Shown piece by piece: positions 2,511 through 26,851 of a stretch of 29,594 bases of DNA. Positions within the stretch are counted from its first letter, which is position 1, and the number at the start of each line of letters is the position of its first letter. The notes beneath the pieces were generated by a model, which was not told the DNA's origin, did no database searches, and saw nothing but the letters and a program-made list of their open reading frames with translations. Location of the stretch: the IMG/VR virus record IMGVR_UViG_3300032087_005880, positions 1-29,594 of that record, one strand, 5' to 3'. Both the position numbers and the translations under genes were made by a program. Source of the stretch: a virus.

Positions 2511-2543
2511 AAAGGGTTCTCTTTGTGAGAACCCTTTTTTTTT
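2511..2543 (+). terminator. Rho-independent terminator
   Basis: An 11-bp perfect stem pairs 2511-2521 (AAAGGGTTCTC) with 2527-2537 around the loop TTTGT, followed by a T run to 2543. It closes the scaffold-capsid-tube transcription unit and separates it from the long portal-tail operon. Confidence 0.92.
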
Positions 2544-4748: not shown

Positions 4749-5291
4749 ATGGCAAGTGTAAAACAAAATCAGAATGTAAACTATGGACTTTACTATAATG
4801 TCTTAGATTACTTCAAAGCAATAATGGACAATCATCCTTCTTTGAACTATGTTTCACAAGGAGATGTGTTCTCAATTGACAATAGAGAGTTTCCTGCATA
4901 CCCATTAGGTAATATTTTAATTACTCAATCGGTTTTAACTGAAAAAACTATTATTCATTCTTGTGAATTAACAATTGCTGATAAAGTAAAATTAAAATCT
5001 AATGAATCTAACCCCTCAACAAACGAACAAACTATTCCTTATTACGGCACTGATGATTTGGTTGATATTCTTGCTAACACATTAAGTATTTGTAACGATT
5101 TAACTACATACACTCAGTTCTCAGTAGATGCATTTGAAATACCAGGTAACGTAAGTGTAATTCCATTTAGAGATAAATTTGATAATGGTCTTGCAGGTCA
5201 TGTATGTAAATTTGACTTAGTTGCATTTGGATTTAGAAATAGATGTACTTACGATTTATTATTAGATTCAGATTTAGATTTTAGTTGTTAA
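4749..5291 (+). CDS. Neck or tail-completion protein (unidentified)
   Basis: The 180-residue protein has an N-terminal helix (YNVLDYFKAIMDNHPSLNYV), a central strand-rich part and an SCELTIADKV segment followed by an acidic DDLVDIL helix. The small alpha/beta build, with an internal helix after a beta strand, is like tail terminator or completion proteins that cap the tail and join it to the head. Its place between the connector and an HK97 gp10-like gene supports that reading. The family was not recognised from sequence. It is part of the continuous late operon with gaps of only a few bases. Confidence 0.5.
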   Translation: MASVKQNQNVNYGLYYNVLDYFKAIMDNHPSLNYVSQGDVFSIDNREFPAYPLGNILITQSVLTEKTIIHSCELTIADKVKLKSNESNPSTNEQTIPYYGTDDLVDILANTLSICNDLTTYTQFSVDAFEIPGNVSVIPFRDKFDNGLAGHVCKFDLVAFGFRNRCTYDLLLDSDLDFSC

Positions 5292-5742: not shown

Positions 5743-6309
5743 ATGTTCAAATGTTACTGCTCGTATTGTTCCTCAAGAAGTTACTTGTGGAGAATAGATA
5801 ATACCCTTTGGGTAGAGATTCCAAAGAATGCATCATCAGCAATAAAATCTGATAATAAAATGCATCAACTTGGTGAAAAAGAAATTCCTAATTATTCAGA
5901 AGCATTCTTTGTACTAAGAGACCCAATCGTTAGATTTAAGTCATTAGTATCCCATTATTTTGTGCATGGCTATCGTTCTGCGTTAGGTAGGAGGTGGTTA
6001 AATGGATTAGGTATAGAAGATATCAATGAAGATAATATCGTATCGCTAACACTCGAAAATTTTGACAAGTTAGAATCTATACAAGAACCTCATCATTGGA
6101 ATTCTCAATCATCATTTATACCTAAATCAGTTTTTGATATTCCAAATCTAAAAGTGTATGATATTAATGAACCTAACCCATTCGTACATAGACACAGTAA
6201 CAAATCTCGTTCAGAAGAAATAATTTTAACCGAAGAACAAATCCAAAGAGTAAAAGAACTCTATAAGGATGATGTAGAACTTTATAATCATCAAATACTT
6301 TTTAAGTAA
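5743..6309 (+). CDS. Sulfotransferase family protein
   Basis: The 188-residue protein has both PAPS-binding signatures of the sulfotransferase family. The 5'-phosphosulfate loop is VEIPKNASSAIKS (about 24-36), equivalent to the P-K-T/N-x-x-[ST] loop. The 3'-phosphate motif is FVLRDPIVRFKSLVS (56-70) with Arg59, Asp60, Arg64 and Ser67. The N-terminus is Cys-rich (CYCSYC). Such enzymes move a sulfuryl group from PAPS to a hydroxyl or amine, often on a carbohydrate. It is short for the family, probably because the acceptor domain is reduced. It sits in the middle of neck and tail genes in the same orientation. An ATG at 5738 opens only a 19-codon ORF, so 5743 was chosen. The substrate is unknown; surface glycan is the natural guess. 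Confidence 0.8.
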   Translation: MFKCYCSYCSSRSYLWRIDNTLWVEIPKNASSAIKSDNKMHQLGEKEIPNYSEAFFVLRDPIVRFKSLVSHYFVHGYRSALGRRWLNGLGIEDINEDNIVSLTLENFDKLESIQEPHHWNSQSSFIPKSVFDIPNLKVYDINEPNPFVHRHSNKSRSEEIILTEEQIQRVKELYKDDVELYNHQILFK

Positions 6310-10250: not shown

Positions 10251-12482
10251 ATGGCTGAGAATCAAGAAACATATAAAACCACCATTGAGGTAGAGGCAAA
10301 AGGTGTACAAGACCTTGATGTACTTAATGCAACGGTTAATACATCGATTGGTGAATTTGAAACATTAAATCAGGCAATTGGTGAAACTGAAGATGCATTA
10401 GGTAAATTAGACCCTGTAAAAGATGCAGAAAAGATTAAGGTACTTCGTAAAGAAATCGTAGAATTAAGAGATAGACAAGAGGATGTAGAAATCCAATCTC
10501 GTAGATTTACTGCTGCACTTGCAGAACAACCTGGTATTGTTGGTCTTGTTGGTGGTTCATTAGAAGGACTAAGAGGTACAATTAAAGTATTTGCCGCAAA
10601 TCCACTTATTGCAGTAATTACTGCTATAGCAGGTGGATTACTTGCATTGTATGAATCCCTTACAAGAACTGAGAAAGGGATGGAGGCGATAGAGAAGATA
10701 GGTCAAGCGGTATCTAAAATATTCAATGGTTTATTTGCAGTAATCGAACCTATTGCATTACAACTTGCAGATTTGGTAGTTGGTTTCTTAGAGAACGAAA
10801 AAGTAATGAATGGTTTATCAAAAACCGTTGGAGTTCTCACAGGTGTATTCACTACATTATTCGGTACTCTAAAGTCAGTAGCAGGATTTATCATTGATAC
10901 ATTAGTAACTAACTTCAAAACACTTATTGGAGTAGCTAAGGGTGCTGGCGATGTCATAGCCGGTGTATTTACATTTGATTGGGATAGAATCAAAGAAGGT
11001 GCCAATGCAGCATTTGATGCAGTAAAAGAAGGGTTGAGTGGAACGGTTGATAATGTAAAAGAATTAGGTAAGGGTGTTGTAGATGCTGCAGTAGATGGAT
11101 TCAAAGCAGGTGAAGAATCTTTCAAAGAAGGATTTAATAGACTAACTGAAACTCAGAAAGAAGAAGCAGATAAGGCTGCAGAAGAAAGAAAGGCGGCCGA
11201 AGAAGAGGCTGCAAAGGTACAAGCAGAGGCATATCTTGCATTACTTGATGCTAGAAATCAAGAACTTTATACAAGAGAACAAAAATATCAAGAAGATTTA
11301 GAGAAGTTAAAGGCAGCAGGAATTACTGACTTTACTAATTTAGAAGAAGTATATCGTAGAGATGTTGCTGATATCAATAAGAAGTATGATGATGAGGCTC
11401 TTGCAAAACAAAAAGAACAACAAGATAAGTTAAAAGAACAAAGACAAGCATTTATTGATGACCAATTATTTCAATTGGATAATGAGTTTATCTTATTAGA
11501 CCAAAAGTATGGTCAACAAATTGCAATGATTAATGAAAGAGAAAGATTAGGTCTTATCTCTCAAGAAGAGGCATCACAAGAAAGATTAAGATTACAAGAA
11601 GAAAGATATAACGAACAAATCAGAATCATTGATGAACAAACTCAATTACTTCTACAAAATGAAGAACTAACCGAGGCAGAAAGAACTCGTATTATGTTAG
11701 AAGGACAGGCTGCGAGAGGTGAGATTGAGATGTTGAAAAAAGAAGATGAGTTACTTTCTTTAGAATCTGAATATGCACAAATTGGTTTAGACTACGATAG
11801 AAGAAGAGAGTTAATAAATCAAAAAGAGGCATTATTATTAGAAGATACTTCACTAACTGAAGAACAAAGAACTGCAATCAAGAGGGCCGCAGTAGAAGAA
11901 AGAAAGGCCCTTGACATGGAGGAGTTAGAGTATAAGGCAGAGGTTCAGAATGCACAATACGATTTACTACAACAATTCGGTGGATTCTTAAATCAGATTG
12001 CAGGTGAAAACAAGAAACTACAAATCGCTGCAGTGATTGCAGAACAAGTTGCAGCAATTGGTAGGATTATTACCAACACTGCAATTGCAAACGCTAAGGC
12101 AGTGGCTGCATCACCTCTAACATTCGGACAACCTTGGGTTGCAATTAATACGGCATCGGCTGCAATCGGTATTGCGTCATCTATTGCTGCAGGTGTTAAG
12201 GCAGTTAGAGATATTAAAAATTCTGACAAGGGTGAGAACGCACCAAGTGGTGGAGGACAAAGACCACCAAGACCTGCATCACCAGGTGTTAGTGGAGCAT
12301 CAATACCTGAAACAGTTGCAACGGGTGGAGAAGTAAATACAGGCGCACAACTTGCACAAACTATTGCAGGTGCACAACAAAGAGATAGTGAAAGACCGAT
12401 TAAGGCATATGTAGTTAGTTCTGATGTATCCTCACAACAAGCATTGGATAGAAGGACTAATTCTGCAGCAACATTCGGATAA
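10251..12482 (+). CDS. Tail tape-measure protein
   Basis: The 743-residue protein is among the longest in the genome and has typical tape-measure features. It has a helical N-terminus, hydrophobic segments at about 114-134 and 190-216, and a Gly/Ala-rich amphipathic region with repeating AGD/KEG patterns at about 220-290. A very long charged coiled coil (about 295-570, rich in Glu, Lys, Gln) follows, then another Ala/Ile-rich hydrophobic stretch (about 590-650) and a flexible Gly/Pro/Ser tail. Tape measures set tail length and may enter the host membrane during DNA ejection. The size suggests a tail of roughly 110 nm if 0.15 nm per residue holds. It is coupled to the small basic ORF upstream. 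Confidence 0.78.
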   Translation: MAENQETYKTTIEVEAKGVQDLDVLNATVNTSIGEFETLNQAIGETEDALGKLDPVKDAEKIKVLRKEIVELRDRQEDVEIQSRRFTAALAEQPGIVGLVGGSLEGLRGTIKVFAANPLIAVITAIAGGLLALYESLTRTEKGMEAIEKIGQAVSKIFNGLFAVIEPIALQLADLVVGFLENEKVMNGLSKTVGVLTGVFTTLFGTLKSVAGFIIDTLVTNFKTLIGVAKGAGDVIAGVFTFDWDRIKEGANAAFDAVKEGLSGTVDNVKELGKGVVDAAVDGFKAGEESFKEGFNRLTETQKEEADKAAEERKAAEEEAAKVQAEAYLALLDARNQELYTREQKYQEDLEKLKAAGITDFTNLEEVYRRDVADINKKYDDEALAKQKEQQDKLKEQRQAFIDDQLFQLDNEFILLDQKYGQQIAMINERERLGLISQEEASQERLRLQEERYNEQIRIIDEQTQLLLQNEELTEAERTRIMLEGQAARGEIEMLKKEDELLSLESEYAQIGLDYDRRRELINQKEALLLEDTSLTEEQRTAIKRAAVEERKALDMEELEYKAEVQNAQYDLLQQFGGFLNQIAGENKKLQIAAVIAEQVAAIGRIITNTAIANAKAVAASPLTFGQPWVAINTASAAIGIASSIAAGVKAVRDIKNSDKGENAPSGGGQRPPRPASPGVSGASIPETVATGGEVNTGAQLAQTIAGAQQRDSERPIKAYVVSSDVSSQQALDRRTNSAATFG

Positions 12483-14788: not shown

Positions 14789-15400
14789 TTATAGAATTTT
14801 TTTGAAGTGAATATTTACTTCTGCACCAACTACATCGTTTGGTCTTTCTGAAAGAATAGTAAATCCATGTGAGAGTAGATAGGTTCTAATGTGTTCTATT
14901 CTATTATTTACTCCTTTATACAAATCAACTGCTGCACTTGCCTCTACAACACCTTCCTTAACAAATTGTATTTTGTCCTTTAGTGATAAGAGAACATTAA
15001 AATCTGCACCTTGTGCATCGATGTGAAGGTAATCAATAAACACAATATCATATAAATTACAAAAATCGTAAAGTGTAATTGTAGGAACTACATAAGAATG
15101 TGTTTTCTTAAAGTCAGGTCTACCTTTCCACTTCTCATGTATGTCATCAGAGAACTCATATAGACTGCTACAACCCCAATCGGACTGTGCTGCTACATTA
15201 AAAGTCTTAAACCCATTCTCTATATCAACTGCAAATGGTAGGGGTCTTATATTGGGATTTTGAACACTTAGGGGATATAGATGTTGTGCAAGTAATTCTT
15301 TAGTTGGTTCGAATGCATAAACAATAGAACCATCTTCTGCTAATATTTTTGTATCTCTGCCAGTATTTGCACCAACCTCTATTTTTGTTTTCCTTATCAT
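14789..15400 (-). CDS. FkbM-family methyltransferase (leftward copy)
   Basis: The 203-residue protein shows the SAM-dependent methyltransferase signature of the FkbM family. Motif I is EVGANTGRDT (8-17), the acidic end of strand 2 is AFEPT (29-33), and HIDAQGADFNVL (126-137) matches the FkbM 'ID.QG.E..VL' motif. FkbM enzymes methylate hydroxyls, often on sugars or natural products. The gene is on the minus strand and overlaps the upstream nucleotidyltransferase-like gene by ATGA, so the two form a coupled pair opposite to the rest of the genome. A second FkbM gene at 21238 looks clearly diverged, judged by eye. Cargo (moron) origin is likely. Confidence 0.8.
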   Translation of the reverse strand: MIRKTKIEVGANTGRDTKILAEDGSIVYAFEPTKELLAQHLYPLSVQNPNIRPLPFAVDIENGFKTFNVAAQSDWGCSSLYEFSDDIHEKWKGRPDFKKTHSYVVPTITLYDFCNLYDIVFIDYLHIDAQGADFNVLLSLKDKIQFVKEGVVEASAAVDLYKGVNNRIEHIRTYLLSHGFTILSERPNDVVGAEVNIHFKKIL

Positions 15401-19649: not shown

Positions 19650-20085
19650 AACAATAGTAGAAGAAATACAAAAACCTATCGCAGTAGTAATAGGACACAA
19701 AGTAAAAGATATGCAGTATATGATTGATAGATACACCGAGAGTGGTTGTGATGTACTCGTATCTACTTGGCCAAGATATCAAAACGAGTTTCCAACAATA
19801 GGTGTAGGTAAAGGATTCATTCAGAAAACACCTGAGAAACAAGGACAAGATTGTTTGAACTTAGTACTTACTGCATTAAAATTAATATTCTACGCAGTAC
19901 CTAAAGACCAAAAGATTAGGTCAATTGGTAATTGTCATACACATCCTATCACATGGGATTATGATTTAACTTGTGAAGAATGGGAGAAATTATTTGATAT
20001 TGACCCTAACACAAAGGATTATGTAAATGACATCGTAGTAAGAAGATACAAAGAATTATATGGAACTGAAGATTCAGACATCTAA
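19630..20085 (+). CDS. Unidentified protein between the terminase genes, weak glycosyltransferase resemblance
   Basis: The 151-residue protein overlaps both neighbours: its start is 20 bases inside the small terminase gene, and its end is 26 bases inside the large terminase gene. Residues 16-50 (PIAVVIGHKVKDMQYMI, then CDVLVSTWPRY) resemble the start of WavE-like and 'DVFIHTW'-type glycosyltransferases, which are frequent in phages. Later it has QDCLNLVLTALKLIFYAV and an isolated CHTHP (102-106), which could also recall a metal or protease motif (H-x-H-P). No family is certain, and the length is too short for a full transferase. Compact overlap shows it is part of the terminase operon. Confidence 0.45.
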   Translation: MAKRKTKTIVEEIQKPIAVVIGHKVKDMQYMIDRYTESGCDVLVSTWPRYQNEFPTIGVGKGFIQKTPEKQGQDCLNLVLTALKLIFYAVPKDQKIRSIGNCHTHPITWDYDLTCEEWEKLFDIDPNTKDYVNDIVVRRYKELYGTEDSDI

Positions 20086-21241
20086 GACATTTCTTGATTT
20101 ATTAAATAATGATAGAATAGCAATACTACAAGGTGGTACTCGTAGTGGTAAATCTTATTCTGCTATTCAGTATTTAATAACTAAAGCATTAGAGAACTCG
20201 GACTTGAGTATCTCTATTGTTAGAAAGTCTTTTCCCTCACTTAGAATCTCTGCATTAAGAGATTTCAAATCTATTCTAAAACAATGGGAGTTGTGGGATG
20301 AGGATTCATGGTATGCAAGTGAAAACTCTTACACATTTGACAATGGTTCAACAATTGAGTTCTTATCAGTACAAGATTCGGAAAGAAGAAAAGGTACAAA
20401 AAGAAATATGTTGTTTATTGATGAAGCAAATGAATTAAATTACGAAGATTACTTTCAGTTGTCTATTCGTACAACTGATAAGATTATTCTTGCATATAAC
20501 CCATCATTCCCAACAAACCATTGGATATTCCAACAAGTTCTTACACATCCTGAAGCAACAAGATACATTACTACTTATCGTGACAATCCATTTCTTGATG
20601 ACACGCTAGTAACTGAAATAGAAAGATTAGCAGAAACATCTCCATCGTATTGGAAGATATATGGTCTTGGATTAGAAGGTGTGGTAGAAGGTCTTATTTT
20701 TGATAATGTAGAAGTAATAGATATTATACCTGATACTGCAGAACTAATGGGATATGGCATTGACTTTGGATATTCGAATGACCCAACTGCATTGGTTGCA
20801 CTTTGGAAAACTGAAGATGGTATTTTATTCGATGAGGTATGTTATATGAAGAACTTACTATCTAATCAGATTTCTAACTTTATTCGTGCAGCATATAATC
20901 AATGGGGAAGAAAAGAAGTTATCGCAGATAGTGCAGACCCAAGACTAATCGAGGAAATTTTTAGAAATGGAATTAATATCAAACCTGCAGTCAAAGGACC
21001 TGATTCAATCCTTGCAGGAATTGATACTATGAAACAATACAAGATATACTTGACAAAAAAATCGGAGAATATGATTGATGAGTTTTATTCTTATACATTT
21101 AAGAAAAATAAAAACGAAGAATTTATGAATGAACCGATTGATACAAACAATCACGCAATCGATGCATGTAGATATGTGTCTATGTTTAAGTTATCAAATA
21201 AAAGAAAGAACTACGGTTCTTACACAATCTCAATCAGATGA
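20060..21241 (+). CDS. terL: Large terminase subunit
   Basis: The 393-residue protein packages DNA into the prohead with an ATPase and a nuclease domain. The Walker A motif is GGTRSGKS (25-32), Walker B MLFIDEAN (117-124, Asp121 and Glu122), and the coupling motif ILAYNPS lies at 143-149. The RNase H-like nuclease carries Asp235 (GIDFGY), Asp290 (ADSADPR) and Asp368 (HAIDACRY). The build fits the PBSX-like/Terminase_3 group. All active residues are present, so both activities should work. The start at 20060 overlaps the preceding gene by 26 bases; the end overlaps the FkbM gene by 4 bases (ATGA). Confidence 0.94.
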   Translation: MELKIQTSKTFLDLLNNDRIAILQGGTRSGKSYSAIQYLITKALENSDLSISIVRKSFPSLRISALRDFKSILKQWELWDEDSWYASENSYTFDNGSTIEFLSVQDSERRKGTKRNMLFIDEANELNYEDYFQLSIRTTDKIILAYNPSFPTNHWIFQQVLTHPEATRYITTYRDNPFLDDTLVTEIERLAETSPSYWKIYGLGLEGVVEGLIFDNVEVIDIIPDTAELMGYGIDFGYSNDPTALVALWKTEDGILFDEVCYMKNLLSNQISNFIRAAYNQWGRKEVIADSADPRLIEEIFRNGINIKPAVKGPDSILAGIDTMKQYKIYLTKKSENMIDEFYSYTFKKNKNEEFMNEPIDTNNHAIDACRYVSMFKLSNKRKNYGSYTISIR

Positions 21242-21852
21242 TATTAGACTTAAATAAGTTACACGAAAAATACGATATGTACATCAGAGGTGTCTTACAC
21301 ATTGGTGCACATTATGGAGAAGAAAATTGGGTATACGATTCTTTGGATATACAACATAGAGTATTTGTAGAACCTATACAATCAAACTTTGGTAGATTAT
21401 TAGAAAAAACTAAAGGAAATCCTAATATAAAATATTTTAATACTGCATTAGGAAATTTCGTTGGTCATGCAGAAATGTGGACTTCATCAAACGAGAACAC
21501 ATCTGCATCAGTACTCAAACCAAAGAATCATTTACATTTACACTCTCATGTTAAGTTTGGTGAAAAGGTAGAAGTAGAAATGGACAAGTTAGATAATCTA
21601 CCAATCAACAAAGGTCTATATAATATGATTAACATAGATGTGCAAGGATACGAATTAGAAGTGTTTAAGGGAGGAACTGAAACTCTTGAGGGTATTGACT
21701 ACATAATGTCAGAAATCAATAGAGATGAGGTTTATGAGGGTTGTGCACATATAGAAGAATTAAAAGAATTTCTTTCACCTTATGGATTCAAATTAGTAGA
21801 AGAAGATTGGGCAGGTAGACAATGGGGTGATGGATTTTTTATAAAACAATAA
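21238..21852 (+). CDS. FkbM-family methyltransferase (rightward copy)
   Basis: The 204-residue protein has FkbM features: HIGAHYGEEN (21-30) in place of the usual GANxG SAM loop, FVEPIQ (43-48) at the end of strand 2, and NIDVQGYELEVFKG (132-145). It is about the same length as the leftward copy at 14789 but clearly different in sequence. The start overlaps the large terminase stop (ATGA), so it is translated with terminase, an odd partner for a sugar-type methyltransferase. It ends GRQWGDGFFIK. A moron that has become part of the operon is likely. The substrate is unknown. Confidence 0.82.
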   Translation: MILDLNKLHEKYDMYIRGVLHIGAHYGEENWVYDSLDIQHRVFVEPIQSNFGRLLEKTKGNPNIKYFNTALGNFVGHAEMWTSSNENTSASVLKPKNHLHLHSHVKFGEKVEVEMDKLDNLPINKGLYNMINIDVQGYELEVFKGGTETLEGIDYIMSEINRDEVYEGCAHIEELKEFLSPYGFKLVEEDWAGRQWGDGFFIKQ

Positions 21853-21856
21853 ACAA

Positions 21857-22120
21857 ATGGCAAAAATATTAGGAGATACTGATAGAGAGGGATATACACA
21901 AATGAAACCCTCAGATTTAACTGAAGAACAAATCATGCAGTTAGCACAATGGGCAAATATTCTTAATGAAGAAAATAAAAACCTTAAAGGATATATTACT
22001 CAATTACAAGCACAATTACAAAGTGCAAGACAAGGTAGGGCATTAGCAGAACACAAACTAAATACTACTATATTAGAACCTATATCAAATTATAAATGGG
22101 AAGATGGCAAAAAAGATTGA
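21857..22120 (+). CDS. 87-residue coiled-coil protein
   Basis: The protein has a short N-terminal part and a long helix at about 22-70, rich in Leu, Gln, Glu and Asn in heptad-like order (EEQIMQLAQWANILNEENKN, continuing with LKGYITQLQAQLQSAR). This predicts a parallel coiled coil. It ends GKKD, and the next gene starts 17 bases before its stop. Small coiled-coil proteins near fibre genes may serve as trimerisation or chaperone factors, but no family is recognised. Confidence 0.6.
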   Translation: MAKILGDTDREGYTQMKPSDLTEEQIMQLAQWANILNEENKNLKGYITQLQAQLQSARQGRALAEHKLNTTILEPISNYKWEDGKKD

Positions 22121-22778
22121 TTTAGAAATTAAAGTTCCAAAAAATTGGAAAGGTGTTACACTTAGAAAATATCTTGAGTTAATTAGAGATATGGAAGTGT
22201 ACAAAGATACACCTGAGGCAATAGATGCAGCCTTATTTCATCACTTAGGTGGTGTTGACCCAAAGTATGTATCTAAGTTAGATATATCCATATATACAGA
22301 TATACGAGATAAGTATTACGAATTGATGAAGATACAAGACATGGATTTGACTCGTAGATTTTATCACAAAGGAATTCAGTATGGTTTCGAACCTAACTTA
22401 TCTGAGATGGCATATGGTGCGTATGTGGATTTACAAAAGTATGAAGAAGTAAAGATTGATGAGAATTGGTCAGAGATTATGTCTATACTATATAGACCTG
22501 TAACTAATACTATTGGAGAACTATATGAAATCGAACCATATAGTGCAAAGATTGATAAGGAGTTATTCTTAGATGTAGATATGGAGATTCACTTCGGTAC
22601 ATTGTTTTTTTTTCTTCATACCTTAACGGACTTACTGAAAGATACCCAGAACTCTTTGAAGCAGACACTCCTGAAGCAGGTGCACAAGTACAATACAACT
22701 TTAATAAAAAATGGAGTGCATACTCCGCAATTTATCAATTATCTAAAGGGAACATCCTTACCTTTGATGAAGTCTTGA
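22104..22778 (+). CDS. Tail-assembly-type protein, zero-frame product
   Basis: The 224-residue zero-frame product starts with an N-terminal domain (about 1-165: KVPKNWKGVTLRKYLELIRD, then YGFEPNLSEMAYGAYVDLQK, then ILYRPVTNTIGELYEIEPYS). The domain is helical with short strands. After the run of nine T (22605-22613) the zero frame continues with a Leu/His/Thr-rich, unconvincing stretch (LHTLTDLLKDTQNSLKQ) until TAA-class stop at 22776-22778. The -1 frame after the same T run gives a much more protein-like continuation to 22882. The zero-frame tail is probably not the main functional form. The gene probably belongs to tail assembly, inferred from the frameshift pattern of tail chaperones, although the tape measure is not adjacent. 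Confidence 0.65.
   Translation: MAKKIDLEIKVPKNWKGVTLRKYLELIRDMEVYKDTPEAIDAALFHHLGGVDPKYVSKLDISIYTDIRDKYYELMKIQDMDLTRRFYHKGIQYGFEPNLSEMAYGAYVDLQKYEEVKIDENWSEIMSILYRPVTNTIGELYEIEPYSAKIDKELFLDVDMEIHFGTLFFFLHTLTDLLKDTQNSLKQTLLKQVHKYNTTLIKNGVHTPQFINYLKGTSLPLMKS
22605..22613 (+). promoter_or_regulatory. T9 slippery site for -1 frameshift
   Basis: Nine T residues occur where the zero-frame codons are 22605-22607, 22608-22610 and 22611-22613. The last seven bases, T TTT TTT (22607-22613), fit the slippery heptamer X XXY YYZ in the right frame. A slip back by one base lets both tRNAs re-pair and moves translation to the frame that reads SSYLNGLTERYPELFE. A sequencing error of one missing T would give the same picture. 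Confidence 0.72.
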
Positions 22779-22882
22779 GATTGCCATTAGAAAAATGTTT
22801 ATTATTCTTGGCATTTGAAAGTGATAAAGGAAAAATGGAAAATATGGTGCATAAGGAGATGATGAAGAAATTCCAAAGGTAG
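22607..22882 (+). CDS. C-terminal extension of 22104 reached by -1 frameshift
   Basis: From 22613 the -1 frame encodes 89 residues up to TAG at 22880-22882, giving a 259-residue fusion with the upstream domain. The segment has a well-formed helical pattern: NGLTERYPELFEADTPEAG, then NKKWSAYSAIYQLSKGNILT and FDEVLRLPLEKCLLFLAFES, and ends with a charged helix. The pattern W.AY..IYxLAxGDI...DEV...P...CLxFLxFExDK is familiar to me from phage proteins, which the zero-frame alternative is not. It has no ATG near its beginning. The fusion is therefore the likely full-length protein and the shorter form a second product, as with tail chaperones. Confidence 0.7.
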   Translation, partial: FFSSYLNGLTERYPELFEADTPEAGAQVQYNFNKKWSAYSAIYQLSKGNILTFDEVLRLPLEKCLLFLAFESDKGKMENMVHKEMMKKFQR

Positions 22883-22926
22883 TTGTCATACAATTTACCT
22901 ATTCTTTGTTAAATATAAAAAATACT

Positions 22927-23106
22927 ATGAGATTAAAGACCATTACATTACCAAAACCAAAGGTAGAACCAACAAAGTCTTACAGTTCTCCTAAAAAAAG
23001 TAGAAGAGGGTGTTTATGTCCAAAAGGAAATAAATATTCAGTTAAGTGTTGTAATGGTGATATGCAGGCTCAAGGAATTGGACTAATCTATAAAAAGGAA
23101 AAGTAA
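22927..23106 (+). CDS. Cys-motif miniprotein A (RGCLCP...CC...QGIG)
   Basis: The 59-residue protein starts at ATG 22927; a longer frame back to a TTG at 22906 has a poorer start. It has a basic, Pro-rich N-terminus and then the motif RRGCLCPKGNKYSVKCCNG (27-45), followed by QAQGIG. Cys residues at 29, 31, 41 and 42 form C-x-C-x9-C-C. The next gene has the same motif with the same spacing. The four Cys may bind a metal ion or form a disulfide-rich knot. The stop overlaps the next start by one base. The pair directly precedes the collagen-like fibre, so a fibre or tail attachment role is possible. Confidence 0.65.
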   Translation: MRLKTITLPKPKVEPTKSYSSPKKSRRGCLCPKGNKYSVKCCNGDMQAQGIGLIYKKEK

Positions 23107-23336
23107 TGGGTAGACTAAGACCAGATAAATGGAGTGGAGTATATCTTGGAGAGACAAGAGGTAGAGCAATTCCAAGAAGAGGTAAACGAGGATGTTTATG
23201 TCCTGATGAGAATAGATACTCTCGTTCATGTTGTAAAGGTGCATTGATTGGACAAGGAATTGGTCAAACCGAAGTACCTGGTGGACAAAGAAGAGGTGCA
23301 TTCTCAAGTGGATTCTCAAATGGATTTGATATATAA
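23106..23336 (+). CDS. Cys-motif miniprotein B (paralogue of 22927)
   Basis: The 76-residue protein has the same core as its neighbour: KRGCLCPDENRYSRSCCKG (27-45) then GQGIG, with Cys 30, 32, 42 and 43 in the same C-x-C-x9-C-C spacing. N-terminal and C-terminal ends differ; the C-terminus is Gly/Arg-rich and ends FSSGFSNGFDI. Tandem paralogues with a 1-base overlap point to duplication. Both are strongly basic. The shared QGIG after the Cys block is part of the conserved unit. No described family could be assigned. The fibre gene starts 14 bases downstream. Confidence 0.68.
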   Translation: MGRLRPDKWSGVYLGETRGRAIPRRGKRGCLCPDENRYSRSCCKGALIGQGIGQTEVPGGQRRGAFSSGFSNGFDI

Positions 23337-23350
23337 AAAGATTTAACTAA

Positions 23351-26300
23351 ATGGCACAACAAAGTAAACAACAATTAGAAAATACTAATCAGAGTAATTT
23401 CCCTAATAATAACACCAATTTTATTACGCCTGATAAGTTAAGAACTTTCAATACCGATATGATTGATTCATTGGTAGATGAAAACTCTTACAATATCGAT
23501 TCAGGTTCATGGAATGCTACTGATGTATCCTTACAAGGACAAATTAATGCACTCGTAGTAAGTGGAAGTGGTGTATCCATTGAAGATGAGGGTGTAAACC
23601 AAGGAGTTGCAACAACTCTTAACTTTAGTGGTAGTGGTGTTACTGCAACAATCGATAATGGTACAGCAAATGTTGTAATTCCAACTATTGCAGGTCCTGC
23701 CGGTACAAGTGGAACAAGTGGTACTGCTGGTACTGCCGGTTCATCGGGTATAGATGGTACTAATGGTACTGCAGGAACCTCTGGTGTTGATGGAGCCGAT
23801 GGTTCTTCTGGCACGAGTGGTACAAGTGGTAGTAGTGGAGTTGATGGAACTAGCGGTAGTAGTGGAACAAGTGGACAAGATGGAACAAGTGGAAGTTCTG
23901 GTAGTTCAGGCTCAAGTGGAGTAGATGGTACATCAGGCTCAAGTGGTTCATCGGGTTCAAGTGGTTCAAGTGGTATTGATGGAACGAGTGGTGTTGACGG
24001 AACGAGTGGCTCTTCTGGTTCAAGTGGAACATCAGGAGTTGATGGTACAAGTGGAAGTAGTGGTTCGAGTGGAACAAGTGGAGTAGATGGACAAGATGGT
24101 TCATCAGGCACTTCGGGCACATCTGGTTCTTCTGGTGTTGATGGTGCTGATGGTAGTAGTGGTACAAGTGGAACGAGTGGAAGTAGTGGAGTTGATGGAA
24201 CATCAGGTATCGATGGAACAAACGGAACTGCAGGAACGAGTGGAGTAGATGGAACGAGTGGTAGTTCTGGCACATCAGGTGTAGATGGTACTTCTGGCTC
24301 AAGTGGTACTTCAGGTGTAGACGGCACATCGGGTTCATCAGGAACATCTGGTGCTGATGGTACAAGTGGTATCGATGGTACTAATGGTACTGCAGGTACA
24401 AGTGGAGTTGACGGAACAAGTGGAAGTAGTGGTACATCGGGTATTGACGGAACGAGTGGTTCTTCGGGCACGAGTGGTGTTGATGGTTCAAGTGGGACAA
24501 GTGGACAAGATGGAACTTCAGGAGTAGATGGTTCGAGTGGAAGTAGTGGTACGAGTGGTACAAGTGGTATCGATGGTACTGCAACATTCCCTTATACTGG
24601 TTCTGCAATCTTTAGTGGAAGTGTAATCGTAACAGGTTCAATTTATTCTGATTCAGAAGCATTCCTAACTGCATCATGGGCTTATTCAGCTAGTTACGCA
24701 GAATTATCAGAAAATGCAACTGAATTATTTGTATCGGCTAGAAATGTTAGTGGTGATACTATACCTAAAGGTAAAGTAGTACATGCTAATGGAGTAACTG
24801 GAGAAAATCCAAATATAGTAACCGCATCTTATGATTCTTCAACTCAAATGCCAGCAATTGGTCTTACACAAACTCCTATTAACGCAAGTGCAGTAGGAGA
24901 TATAATCTTAACTGGTACAATAAAGGGAATCGATACATCTACCTTAACAGCAGGAGCTAACGTATATGTAGGGTTAAATGGAGCTCTTACTTCAACTAAA
25001 CCAACTGGTAGTGGTAACTTTATACAAAACATTGGTATTGCAACTAAAATAGATGCAATTGATGGAGAGTTAATTGTATTAGGTAGTGGTAGAAGTAACG
25101 ATTTACCAAACATCGCTGAAGGTAGTATTTGGGTAGGTGATTCTAATGCAGTTCCTACTGCAGTTACTACTTCTTCATTGAGTGTGGCAAGTGCAGTATC
25201 TTCATCTTACTCAACTACTGCCTCATACGCATTGACAACAGATGTTAGTGGATTCCCATTCACGGGTTCAGCACAAATTACAGGTTCACTTGGTGTAACT
25301 GGTTCAATCCAAGTACAAGCATTAGGAAGTACGGGTTCAGTAGTTACTACATTAACTGACTCTTATACGGGTACACCTGAAGCAAATAAAGTTGTAACAC
25401 TTTCACAATCTGAATACGATGGTATTGCAACACCTGATGACAATACTCTTTACATTATTAGTGGTTCGTTTATCACAGGTTCACAAGGACCACAAGGTGA
25501 TGCTGGTACAAGTGGTACGAGTGGAACAAGTGGAGTTAATGGAACAAGTGGAGTTGATGGTGCCGATGGTACATCAGGTGTAAACGGAACGAGTGGAGTA
25601 AATGGTACTTCGGGTGTAGATGGAGCAGATGGAACAAGTGGTGTCAATGGTACAAGTGGAACATCAGGAGTTAATGGAGACAATGGAACATCAGGTACTT
25701 CAGGAGTAAATGGAGATAACGGTACGAGTGGAACGAGTGGTGTCAATGGTACGAGTGGAACGAGTGGTGTCAATGGTGCTGCAGGGGATAATGGTACATC
25801 GGGTACAAGTGGACTAACGGGTACATCAGGTACAAGTGGTGTTAGTGCCGATGCATTCCCATTCACAGGTTCTGCACAAATTACTGGTTCTTTAGGAGTA
25901 ACTGGTTCTGCATTTAGTGAAATAGGAATAGATGTAATTGGAAGTATTACTGCTGATAGAATATACAATAGAGAATCAATCAATACCAATTCCCAATCAA
26001 CTTTTTATGGTTGGCAGGCAGGATTAAATGATGCATCATCTGGTTCTACTGCAATTGGATTTGGTGCAATGGGATTATCATCTGCTGCTAATACTGGTGG
26101 AAATAATACTGCATTAGGAGATTATGCTGTTAGAAATATTAATGGTGGTAGTAGTAATACTGGTATAGGTGCTAATTCATTACAATATGTAGATATTGGT
26201 ATTAGAAATACGGGAGTTGGACAAAGTGCACTAGCAGGAAACTATTTAACTTCATCAGTTGCATTTAATAACAATACTGCTATCGGTAGTTGGGCAGGTA

Positions 26301-26851
26301 GAAACCATACTGATAACAGTGGAACATATCACTTAACAAAAGCAGAAGGTTCAATCTTTATTGGTGCAGGTTCTCATGCAAAAGAAAATGATTCATACGA
26401 AGAAATCGTAATTGGTAGTGGTTCAAGAGGACATGGAGACTACACAGTAACAATAGGTAACTATCAAACATCAGGAAGTTATCATCATGGTAAATTACAC
26501 ATCTTAACGGGTAGTGTTGATGGTGGTATCGATGTAGATGGACCAGTAAATGGAAATGTAGTAAATATTGCAAGTGCTGCAACAATTAATATAGATTTAA
26601 GTAAAGGTACATTCTTTACTTCATCAATTGCAGGAACAACAACCGTAAACTTTACAAATATTACACCTGGTGTAACTGCAAACATCGAATTAGATACAAG
26701 TGGAACACCAGTATGTAACTTTGGTGCAATGGTTAAAGAACCTGCAGGTTCAGAGTATACTGCTTCTGCTGCAGGAAATATAGATATACTATCTGCAGTA
26801 TCATTCGATGGAACAACAGTATATGTAGTATCAAGTAACGAAATGAAATAA
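23351..26851 (+). CDS. Collagen-like tail fibre with beta-roll tip
   Basis: The 1166-residue protein begins with an attachment-like domain (1-110). Collagen-type Gly-x-y repeats follow at about 115-411, almost only with Thr, Ser, Asp, Val, Ala and Ile in x and y, and nearly no proline after GPAG. A beta domain at about 430-620 has NVSGDTIPKGKVVHANGVTG. Two further elements of the form FPFTGSAQITGSLGVTGS (about 634 and 835) flank a second collagen-like block (about 710-833). Near 880-1040 there are repeats of the type NTAIGSWAG, NTALGDYAV and NTGIGANSL, like the left-handed beta-roll of YadA heads. The protein should be a long trimeric fibre that binds the host surface. Its antisense strand is open for about 980 bases only because of the repeats. 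Confidence 0.85.
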   Translation: MAQQSKQQLENTNQSNFPNNNTNFITPDKLRTFNTDMIDSLVDENSYNIDSGSWNATDVSLQGQINALVVSGSGVSIEDEGVNQGVATTLNFSGSGVTATIDNGTANVVIPTIAGPAGTSGTSGTAGTAGSSGIDGTNGTAGTSGVDGADGSSGTSGTSGSSGVDGTSGSSGTSGQDGTSGSSGSSGSSGVDGTSGSSGSSGSSGSSGIDGTSGVDGTSGSSGSSGTSGVDGTSGSSGSSGTSGVDGQDGSSGTSGTSGSSGVDGADGSSGTSGTSGSSGVDGTSGIDGTNGTAGTSGVDGTSGSSGTSGVDGTSGSSGTSGVDGTSGSSGTSGADGTSGIDGTNGTAGTSGVDGTSGSSGTSGIDGTSGSSGTSGVDGSSGTSGQDGTSGVDGSSGSSGTSGTSGIDGTATFPYTGSAIFSGSVIVTGSIYSDSEAFLTASWAYSASYAELSENATELFVSARNVSGDTIPKGKVVHANGVTGENPNIVTASYDSSTQMPAIGLTQTPINASAVGDIILTGTIKGIDTSTLTAGANVYVGLNGALTSTKPTGSGNFIQNIGIATKIDAIDGELIVLGSGRSNDLPNIAEGSIWVGDSNAVPTAVTTSSLSVASAVSSSYSTTASYALTTDVSGFPFTGSAQITGSLGVTGSIQVQALGSTGSVVTTLTDSYTGTPEANKVVTLSQSEYDGIATPDDNTLYIISGSFITGSQGPQGDAGTSGTSGTSGVNGTSGVDGADGTSGVNGTSGVNGTSGVDGADGTSGVNGTSGTSGVNGDNGTSGTSGVNGDNGTSGTSGVNGTSGTSGVNGAAGDNGTSGTSGLTGTSGTSGVSADAFPFTGSAQITGSLGVTGSAFSEIGIDVIGSITADRIYNRESINTNSQSTFYGWQAGLNDASSGSTAIGFGAMGLSSAANTGGNNTALGDYAVRNINGGSSNTGIGANSLQYVDIGIRNTGVGQSALAGNYLTSSVAFNNNTAIGSWAGRNHTDNSGTYHLTKAEGSIFIGAGSHAKENDSYEEIVIGSGSRGHGDYTVTIGNYQTSGSYHHGKLHILTGSVDGGIDVDGPVNGNVVNIASAATINIDLSKGTFFTSSIAGTTTVNFTNITPGVTANIELDTSGTPVCNFGAMVKEPAGSEYTASAAGNIDILSAVSFDGTTVYVVSSNEMK

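What the first reader, a model, noticed from the sequence alone, without database searches (positions are those of the whole stretch)
22605..22882. Programmed -1 frameshift candidate at a T9 run, giving a 259-residue fusion
The heptamer T TTT TTT is in the exact zero-frame register for -1 slippage. After it, the zero frame reads an unconvincing 56-codon tail, while the -1 frame reads 89 residues with a clean helical, phage-like pattern ending at 22882. Tail-assembly chaperones are the known phage genes that make two products this way (established for lambda G/GT and many tailed phages). Here the gene is about 12 kb (or 17 kb around the circle) from the tape measure, which would be an unusual location.
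Basis: partly seen in the sequence, partly recalled or inferred. Interest (0 to 1): 0.72.

Follow-up and report, generated by a model that had tools for sequence, protein, structure and literature searches.

The report
Conserved T9 slip makes two proteins
A run of nine T's in one phage gene lets the cell make two versions of a likely tail-building helper protein, and more than 200 related virus sequences keep a run of nine to eleven T's at the same spot, so it is a built-in switch and not a sequencing error.

Summary
T9 at 22605-22613 ends the shared part of a 224-aa ORF (22104-22778); a -1 shift there adds 89 residues (ends 22882; fusion 259 aa). All 232 loci that gave both halves, the window and the cultured Nonlabens phage P12024S (about 25% identity) among them, need the same -1 shift at an unbroken T9-T11: none shorter, none with TTC, none already fused. 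The zero-frame tail is not junk: it stays open about 50 codons where about 10 are expected, so about 150 nt are dual-coding.

The N-terminal domain resembles P2 gpE/Mu gp41 tail-assembly chaperones (PF10109), below Pfam's cut-off; P2 gpE is extended by -1 slippage at T6G. More distant phages carry the gene as one continuous ORF, in Duneviridae upstream of the tape measure.

Best reading: a tail-chaperone-like gene giving a short and a long product. The length rule (at least 9 T) and the lack of RNA structure favour RNA-polymerase slippage over ribosomal frameshifting, without proof. Related phages carry a second conserved T10 in a neck/tail gene, where either indel truncates the protein. Verdict: real, a new variant of a known kind.

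The parts
22104..22778 (+). Zero-frame ORF, 224 aa: N-terminal domain plus alternative tail (short product)
   Evidence: homologous in all relatives
22605..22613 (+). T9 slip site; T_TTT_TTT at 22607-22613 in -1 register
   Evidence: T9-T11 in 232 of 232 loci
22613..22882 (+). -1 frame extension, 89 residues and stop (C-terminal domain of the 259-aa long product)
   Evidence: conserved as protein; all-helical model
22614..22778 (+). Dual-coding stretch: the zero-frame tail and the -1 domain share the same bases
   Evidence: zero frame held open in relatives; excess zero-frame similarity over four control stretches
20060..21241 (+). Terminase large subunit, conserved upstream neighbour
   Evidence: PF04466; synteny
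22906..23336 (+). Two small conserved ORFs (66 and 76 aa) that follow the slip gene in the window clade
   Evidence: synteny; function unknown
10251..12482 (+). Tape measure protein (743 aa), presumed partner, about 10 kb away
   Evidence: several PHROG tape-measure hits

Best explanation
The gene makes two proteins from one start. Shown: an N-terminal domain is followed by an invariant T9-T11 run, after which two frames are both maintained, the zero frame (alternative tail of about 50 residues) and the -1 frame (C-terminal domain of about 87 residues). Inferred: an unslipped message gives the short form; a slip at the run (one extra U put in by RNA polymerase, or a -1 step of the ribosome) gives the long form. 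I favour polymerase slippage, about 60:40. Inferred from family kinship: the proteins act as tail-assembly chaperones of the P2 gpE/E+E' kind, many short copies and few long ones helping the tail tube form on the tape measure.
For: Slip in 232 of 232 loci, 84 clusters at 80% identity, 13 at 50%, with no ascertainment on the run; present in the cultured phages P12024S and P12024L. No synonymous change in the three Phe codons. Zero frame held open and moderately constrained. Runs never below 9 T; A9+ and T8/T9 avoided in other genes; no RNA fold signal; nine is the length at which selection against A/T runs shows in many bacterial genomes (PMC1088944). N-domain: PF10109 in 24 of 70 members and PHROG 166 in 23 of 70, hhalign 90% to real PF10109 proteins with the other comparisons under 1%; Foldseek hit to a protein named tail assembly chaperone.
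Against: No RNA, protein or reads were seen. PF10109 scores shown are below the curated cut-off and the window protein itself has no Pfam hit. No solved structure matches. The gene is not next to the tape measure. The continuous family shows no PF10109 link of its own. P2-like T6G and T7G sites are held to be ribosomal (PMC3931495).
Confidence: 0.6

Rival explanations
1. Same two-product gene, but by classical -1 ribosomal frameshifting on U_UUU_UUU, as in P2 E+E' and lambda G-GT.
For: The heptamer is in register in every locus. The closest known family, P2 gpE, uses T6G, and relatives T7G or T7C (PMC3931495). All phage tail-chaperone cases in the review are ribosomal (PMC5009743).
Against: Seven T's, or TTC/TTG as last codon, would do, yet none of 232 has fewer than nine T. 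No downstream structure stands out. A T10 recurs in a second gene of the same phages.
Confidence: 0.37
2. The two frames are simply a sequencing or assembly error, or a decayed gene.
For: Homopolymers are error-prone; the window is one contig without reads.
Against: 232 loci from many samples and cultured phages agree, with both frames conserved.
Confidence: 0.02
3. DNA-level phase variation: the run changes length by replication slippage and turns the long form on or off.
For: Homopolymer runs do this in bacteria; one second-site locus (L273) has T9 where a 98% identical one has T10.
Against: None of 232 loci is in the fused state; phase variation would leave some.
Confidence: 0.03
4. The C-terminal part is a separate gene started internally or by coupling.
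For: P12024S genes 38 and 39 were annotated as two genes.
Against: Only 1 of 84 clusters has an ATG, and 8 any common start codon, in the first dozen -1 codons; 11 have no ATG at all. Continuous homologues show that the two parts are one protein.
Confidence: 0.03
5. A two-product virion-assembly gene, but a head-tail joining or neck factor and not a tail-tube chaperone.
For: In Duneviridae the continuous homologue lies right after the portal and adaptor genes and before a small neck-like gene; PF10109 similarity is sub-threshold.
Against: PF10109 and PHROG 166 are the recurring hits with a known function, and the one informative name among the structural hits is tail assembly chaperone.
Confidence: 0.3

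Closest known systems
P2 gpE / E+E' tail chaperone (PF10109, Phage_TAC_7; Mu gp41)
   Same: N-terminal 80 residues similar by profile; short product and -1 extended product; site is a T run
   Different: Here T9-T11 instead of T6G/T7G (PMC3931495), a much larger N-part and extension, a zero-frame tail of about 50 codons, and a place next to TerL instead of between tail tube and tape measure genes
Lambda gpG / gpGT
   Same: Two products by -1 recoding, in a presumed tail-assembly role (PMC5009743)
   Different: No sequence similarity was tested; ribosomal there; lambda's place before the tape measure is not kept here
Continuous homologue, PHROG 25418 (Duneviridae phages 2A, laban6-1, Ingeline_1; Leef_1; BT-TP2; Microcystis phage)
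   Same: Full-length homologues by profile (hhalign 97.7%)
   Different: One continuous ORF of 259-301 aa, T runs of at most six; no two-product arrangement seen
Bacterial transcriptional slippage genes (Thermus dnaX A9, Shigella mxiE/spa13, Citrobacter tssM1)
   Same: Homopolymer of about nine or more and two length variants from one gene (PMC1088944, PMC4256274)
   Different: Those are bacterial genes; slippage there was shown on RNA, here it is inferred from sequence

Membership tests
Phage_TAC_7 (PF10109) tail assembly chaperone | Profile score above the curated cut-off (25 bits) | tested here: not met
   best score shown 20.8 bits; 24 of 70 members hit at E up to 0.1; window protein none
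Phage_TAC_7 (PF10109) tail assembly chaperone | Profile-profile similarity to real members | tested here: met
   hhalign 90%, E 1.6e-6 for one comparison, residues 3-79; the other comparisons 0.08 to 0.95%
Phage_TAC_7 (PF10109) tail assembly chaperone | Gene between tail tube and tape measure | tested here: not met
   after TerL in the window clade and in P12024S; after portal/adaptor in Duneviridae
Phage_TAC_7 (PF10109) tail assembly chaperone | Binding to tape measure and tail tube | not testable with these tools
   needs an experiment
Programmed -1 recoding, either level | Slip sequence and frame change conserved across divergent homologues | tested here: met
   232 of 232 loci, P12024S included
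Programmed -1 recoding, either level | Both frames under selection after the site | tested here: met
Ribosomal -1 frameshifting | In-register X_XXY_YYZ heptamer | tested here: met
   T_TTT_TTT in all loci
Ribosomal -1 frameshifting | Downstream stimulatory stem-loop (common, not obligatory) | tested here: not met
   mean z 0.10 to 0.15 in 84 clusters, as in controls; pseudoknots were not modelled
Transcriptional slippage | Homopolymer of about nine or more A or T, length conserved | tested here: met
   T9-T11 in all; such runs avoided in other genes
Transcriptional slippage | mRNA with a number of U's different from the DNA | not testable with these tools
   needs RNA sequencing
PHROG 25418 continuous family | Uninterrupted ORF over both domains | tested here: not met
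   homologous, but split by the slip in every window-clade locus

The most novel reading that the evidence does not exclude
A whole clade of mainly metagenomic phages, with cultured members on a flavobacterium, sets the ratio of its virion-assembly proteins by RNA-polymerase slippage at two conserved long T runs: in the chaperone-like gene slippage lengthens the product, in a neck/tail gene it shortens it. This would be a phage use of transcriptional slippage, with a long dual-coding stretch, in place of the ribosomal frameshift.
Probability: 0.45. Interest if true: 0.8.

Novelty: new variant of a known kind. Interest (0 to 1): 0.62.

Why it matters
Tail-chaperone recoding is a textbook ribosomal frameshift. 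Here a gene of that kind is tied to a homopolymer of at least nine T, keeps two overlapping C-termini, and exists as a plain continuous ORF in other phage families. That gives a natural series for asking how recoding arises or is lost, and whether RNA polymerase can take over the ribosome's role. The cultured phages P12024S and P12024L make it directly testable. It also shows that this gene is annotated as two separate genes in the cultured relatives.

Tried and rejected
PDB fold and sequence searches: nothing. Profile scan of bacterial and archaeal genomes: no relative confirmed. Rfam: nothing. RNA structure up- and downstream of the run: no signal. NCBIfam on members: scattered chance-like hits. 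Pfam on the continuous family: nothing useful. Slippery runs in six real PF10109 genes: none beyond T5 was found at the expected place, so they gave no direct comparison. To find real PF10109 proteins I used a probe peptide typed as an approximate consensus; only the records it found were used afterwards. Considered and rejected: sequencing error, decay, phase variation, internal start (see rivals).

Full report
What is there. The window is a circular phage contig (91-nt repeat at both ends). ORF 22104-22778 (224 aa) holds T9 at 22605-22613; the -1 frame is open through 22882. The joined product is 259 aa.

Is it real. Scans of IMG/VR used patterns upstream or downstream of the run, never the run itself. 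232 loci gave both halves (P12024S and the window included), and every one needs a -1 shift at one unbroken T run: 168 are T9 in frame 0, 43 T10 in register 1, 15 T9 in register 1, six others (T9-T11). The loci include some overlapping records of the same contigs; 224 full-length ones make 84 clusters at 80% identity and 13 at 50%. The cultured Nonlabens phages P12024S and P12024L, about 25% identical over both halves, have it too and were annotated there as two genes. An assembly error or a decaying gene is excluded. So is phase variation as the main mode, since no locus is in the fused state.

Both frames are used. The -1 extension is conserved as protein. The zero-frame tail stays open 50.3 codons on average against 9.8 when the -1 frame is recoded with synonymous codons (75 of 84 clusters below p 0.05; first test), and against 6.9 in the matching frame of the N-half. 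The +1 frame closes within 0-11 codons in the first set of loci. Given the -1 protein and stop avoidance, zero-frame residues are still more alike between distant pairs (excess 0.47 BLOSUM units per residue) than in four control stretches (0.11-0.22). Relatedness can inflate this figure, so I read it as moderate support.

Which machine slips. A heptamer of seven T's would serve the ribosome, and so would TTTTTTC or TTTTTTG: P2 uses T6G, relatives T7G and T7C (PMC3931495). Here nothing below nine occurs; TTC never occurs in the run though it makes 27% of Phe codons elsewhere in the gene; and when the run starts late in a codon it is extended at its 3' end. The residue read there in the fusion is F or L, whereas the continuous homologues have G, A, E or S at the matching place, so nucleotides rather than protein seem to be selected; this rests on a distant alignment. 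Other genes of these phages hold no A9 or longer (about 32 expected) and no T8 or T9 (about 11 expected); the only T10s are a second conserved site. A survey of 108 bacterial genomes found that selection against A/T runs becomes evident, in a large share of them, at nine (PMC1088944). No RNA fold stands out beside the run. I weigh polymerase to ribosome about 60:40; both may act.

What the protein is. The window protein alone hits only PHROG 32199, of unknown function. In relatives, PF10109 (P2 gpE, Mu gp41) appears in 24 of 70 and PHROG 166 'tail protein' in 23 of 70, below the Pfam cut-off where scores were shown; PHROG 166 is also the family that a real PF10109 protein hits best. Profile against profile, the N-terminal 80 residues match real PF10109 proteins at 90%, while the other comparisons stay under 1%. 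AlphaFold gives a confident N-domain and runs the zero-frame tail on as a long helix of low confidence; the -1 part is all-helical. Foldseek finds mostly phage proteins of unknown function and one named tail assembly chaperone; the PDB gives nothing.

Continuous relatives. Flavobacterium phages 2A and laban6-1, Cellulophaga phage Ingeline_1, Polaribacter phage Leef_1, Bacteroides phage BT-TP2 and a Microcystis phage carry the gene as one ORF of 259-301 aa with T runs of at most six; hhalign matches it over nearly its whole length to the slip family at 97.7%. In the Duneviridae members it lies between the portal/adaptor genes and the tape measure. In P12024S it lies between TerL and the tail genes, about 6.4 kb before the tape measure. 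In the window clade it stays after TerL, while fibre-like, head and other genes lie between it and the tape measure. Which state is ancestral was not resolved.

A second site. Relatives of window gene 4749-5291 carry T10 at about codon 167 in 79 of 80 fetched loci and T9 in one. The long form is 276-289 aa; an indel of either sign ends the protein within 0-7 codons, near 170 aa, the length of homologues without the run. The window copy lacks the run. The 80 loci were ranked by similarity to a long form, so they say nothing on how common the site is. In P12024S-like loci the homologue of this gene follows the slip gene directly.

Verdict. A real, conserved two-product gene, tail-chaperone-like, with an unusual slip site. 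It is not filed as a PF10109 member, because the cut-off and the gene place are not met; it may still work like one. New variant of a known kind.

Noticed in passing
L254-L333; also L027:18012, L040:11323, L055:10195, L057:12623, L062:18424, L084:14083 (homologues of window 4749-5291): A second conserved homopolymer, T10 (xTT TTT TTT TTR), at about codon 167 of a neck/tail-like gene: 79 of 80 loci T10, one T9. The zero frame gives 276-289 aa; one T more or fewer stops the protein near 170 aa, the length of homologues without the run. The window copy has no run.
   Followed up: partly
Coding sequences of the window clade (524 genes in related loci): Long A and T runs are strongly avoided: A9+ 0 seen against about 32 expected; T8 and T9 0 against about 11. 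The cut-off looks one base shorter for T than for A.
   Followed up: partly
L240 10352-10927 (Flavobacterium phage 6H gp10): The record's ORF of 191 aa is a frame-broken version of the continuous 293-aa homologue that near relatives such as phage 2A carry.
   Followed up: partly
window 2535-2543: The window's only other T9: it follows a strong hairpin (-17.8 kcal/mol) after gene 1930-2484, an ordinary intrinsic terminator.
   Followed up: yes
window 23351-26851: 1166-aa ORF with long collagen-like GTSG/GVDG repeats in 9- and 18-nt steps, likely a tail fibre.
   Followed up: no
window 5743-6309, 14789-15400, 21238-21852: Cargo-like genes in or near the structural region: a sulfotransferase-like and two FkbM-type methyltransferase-like ORFs (judged by eye from the translations). 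The one at 21238 separates TerL from the slip gene and gave no hit in the loci of close relatives.
   Followed up: no
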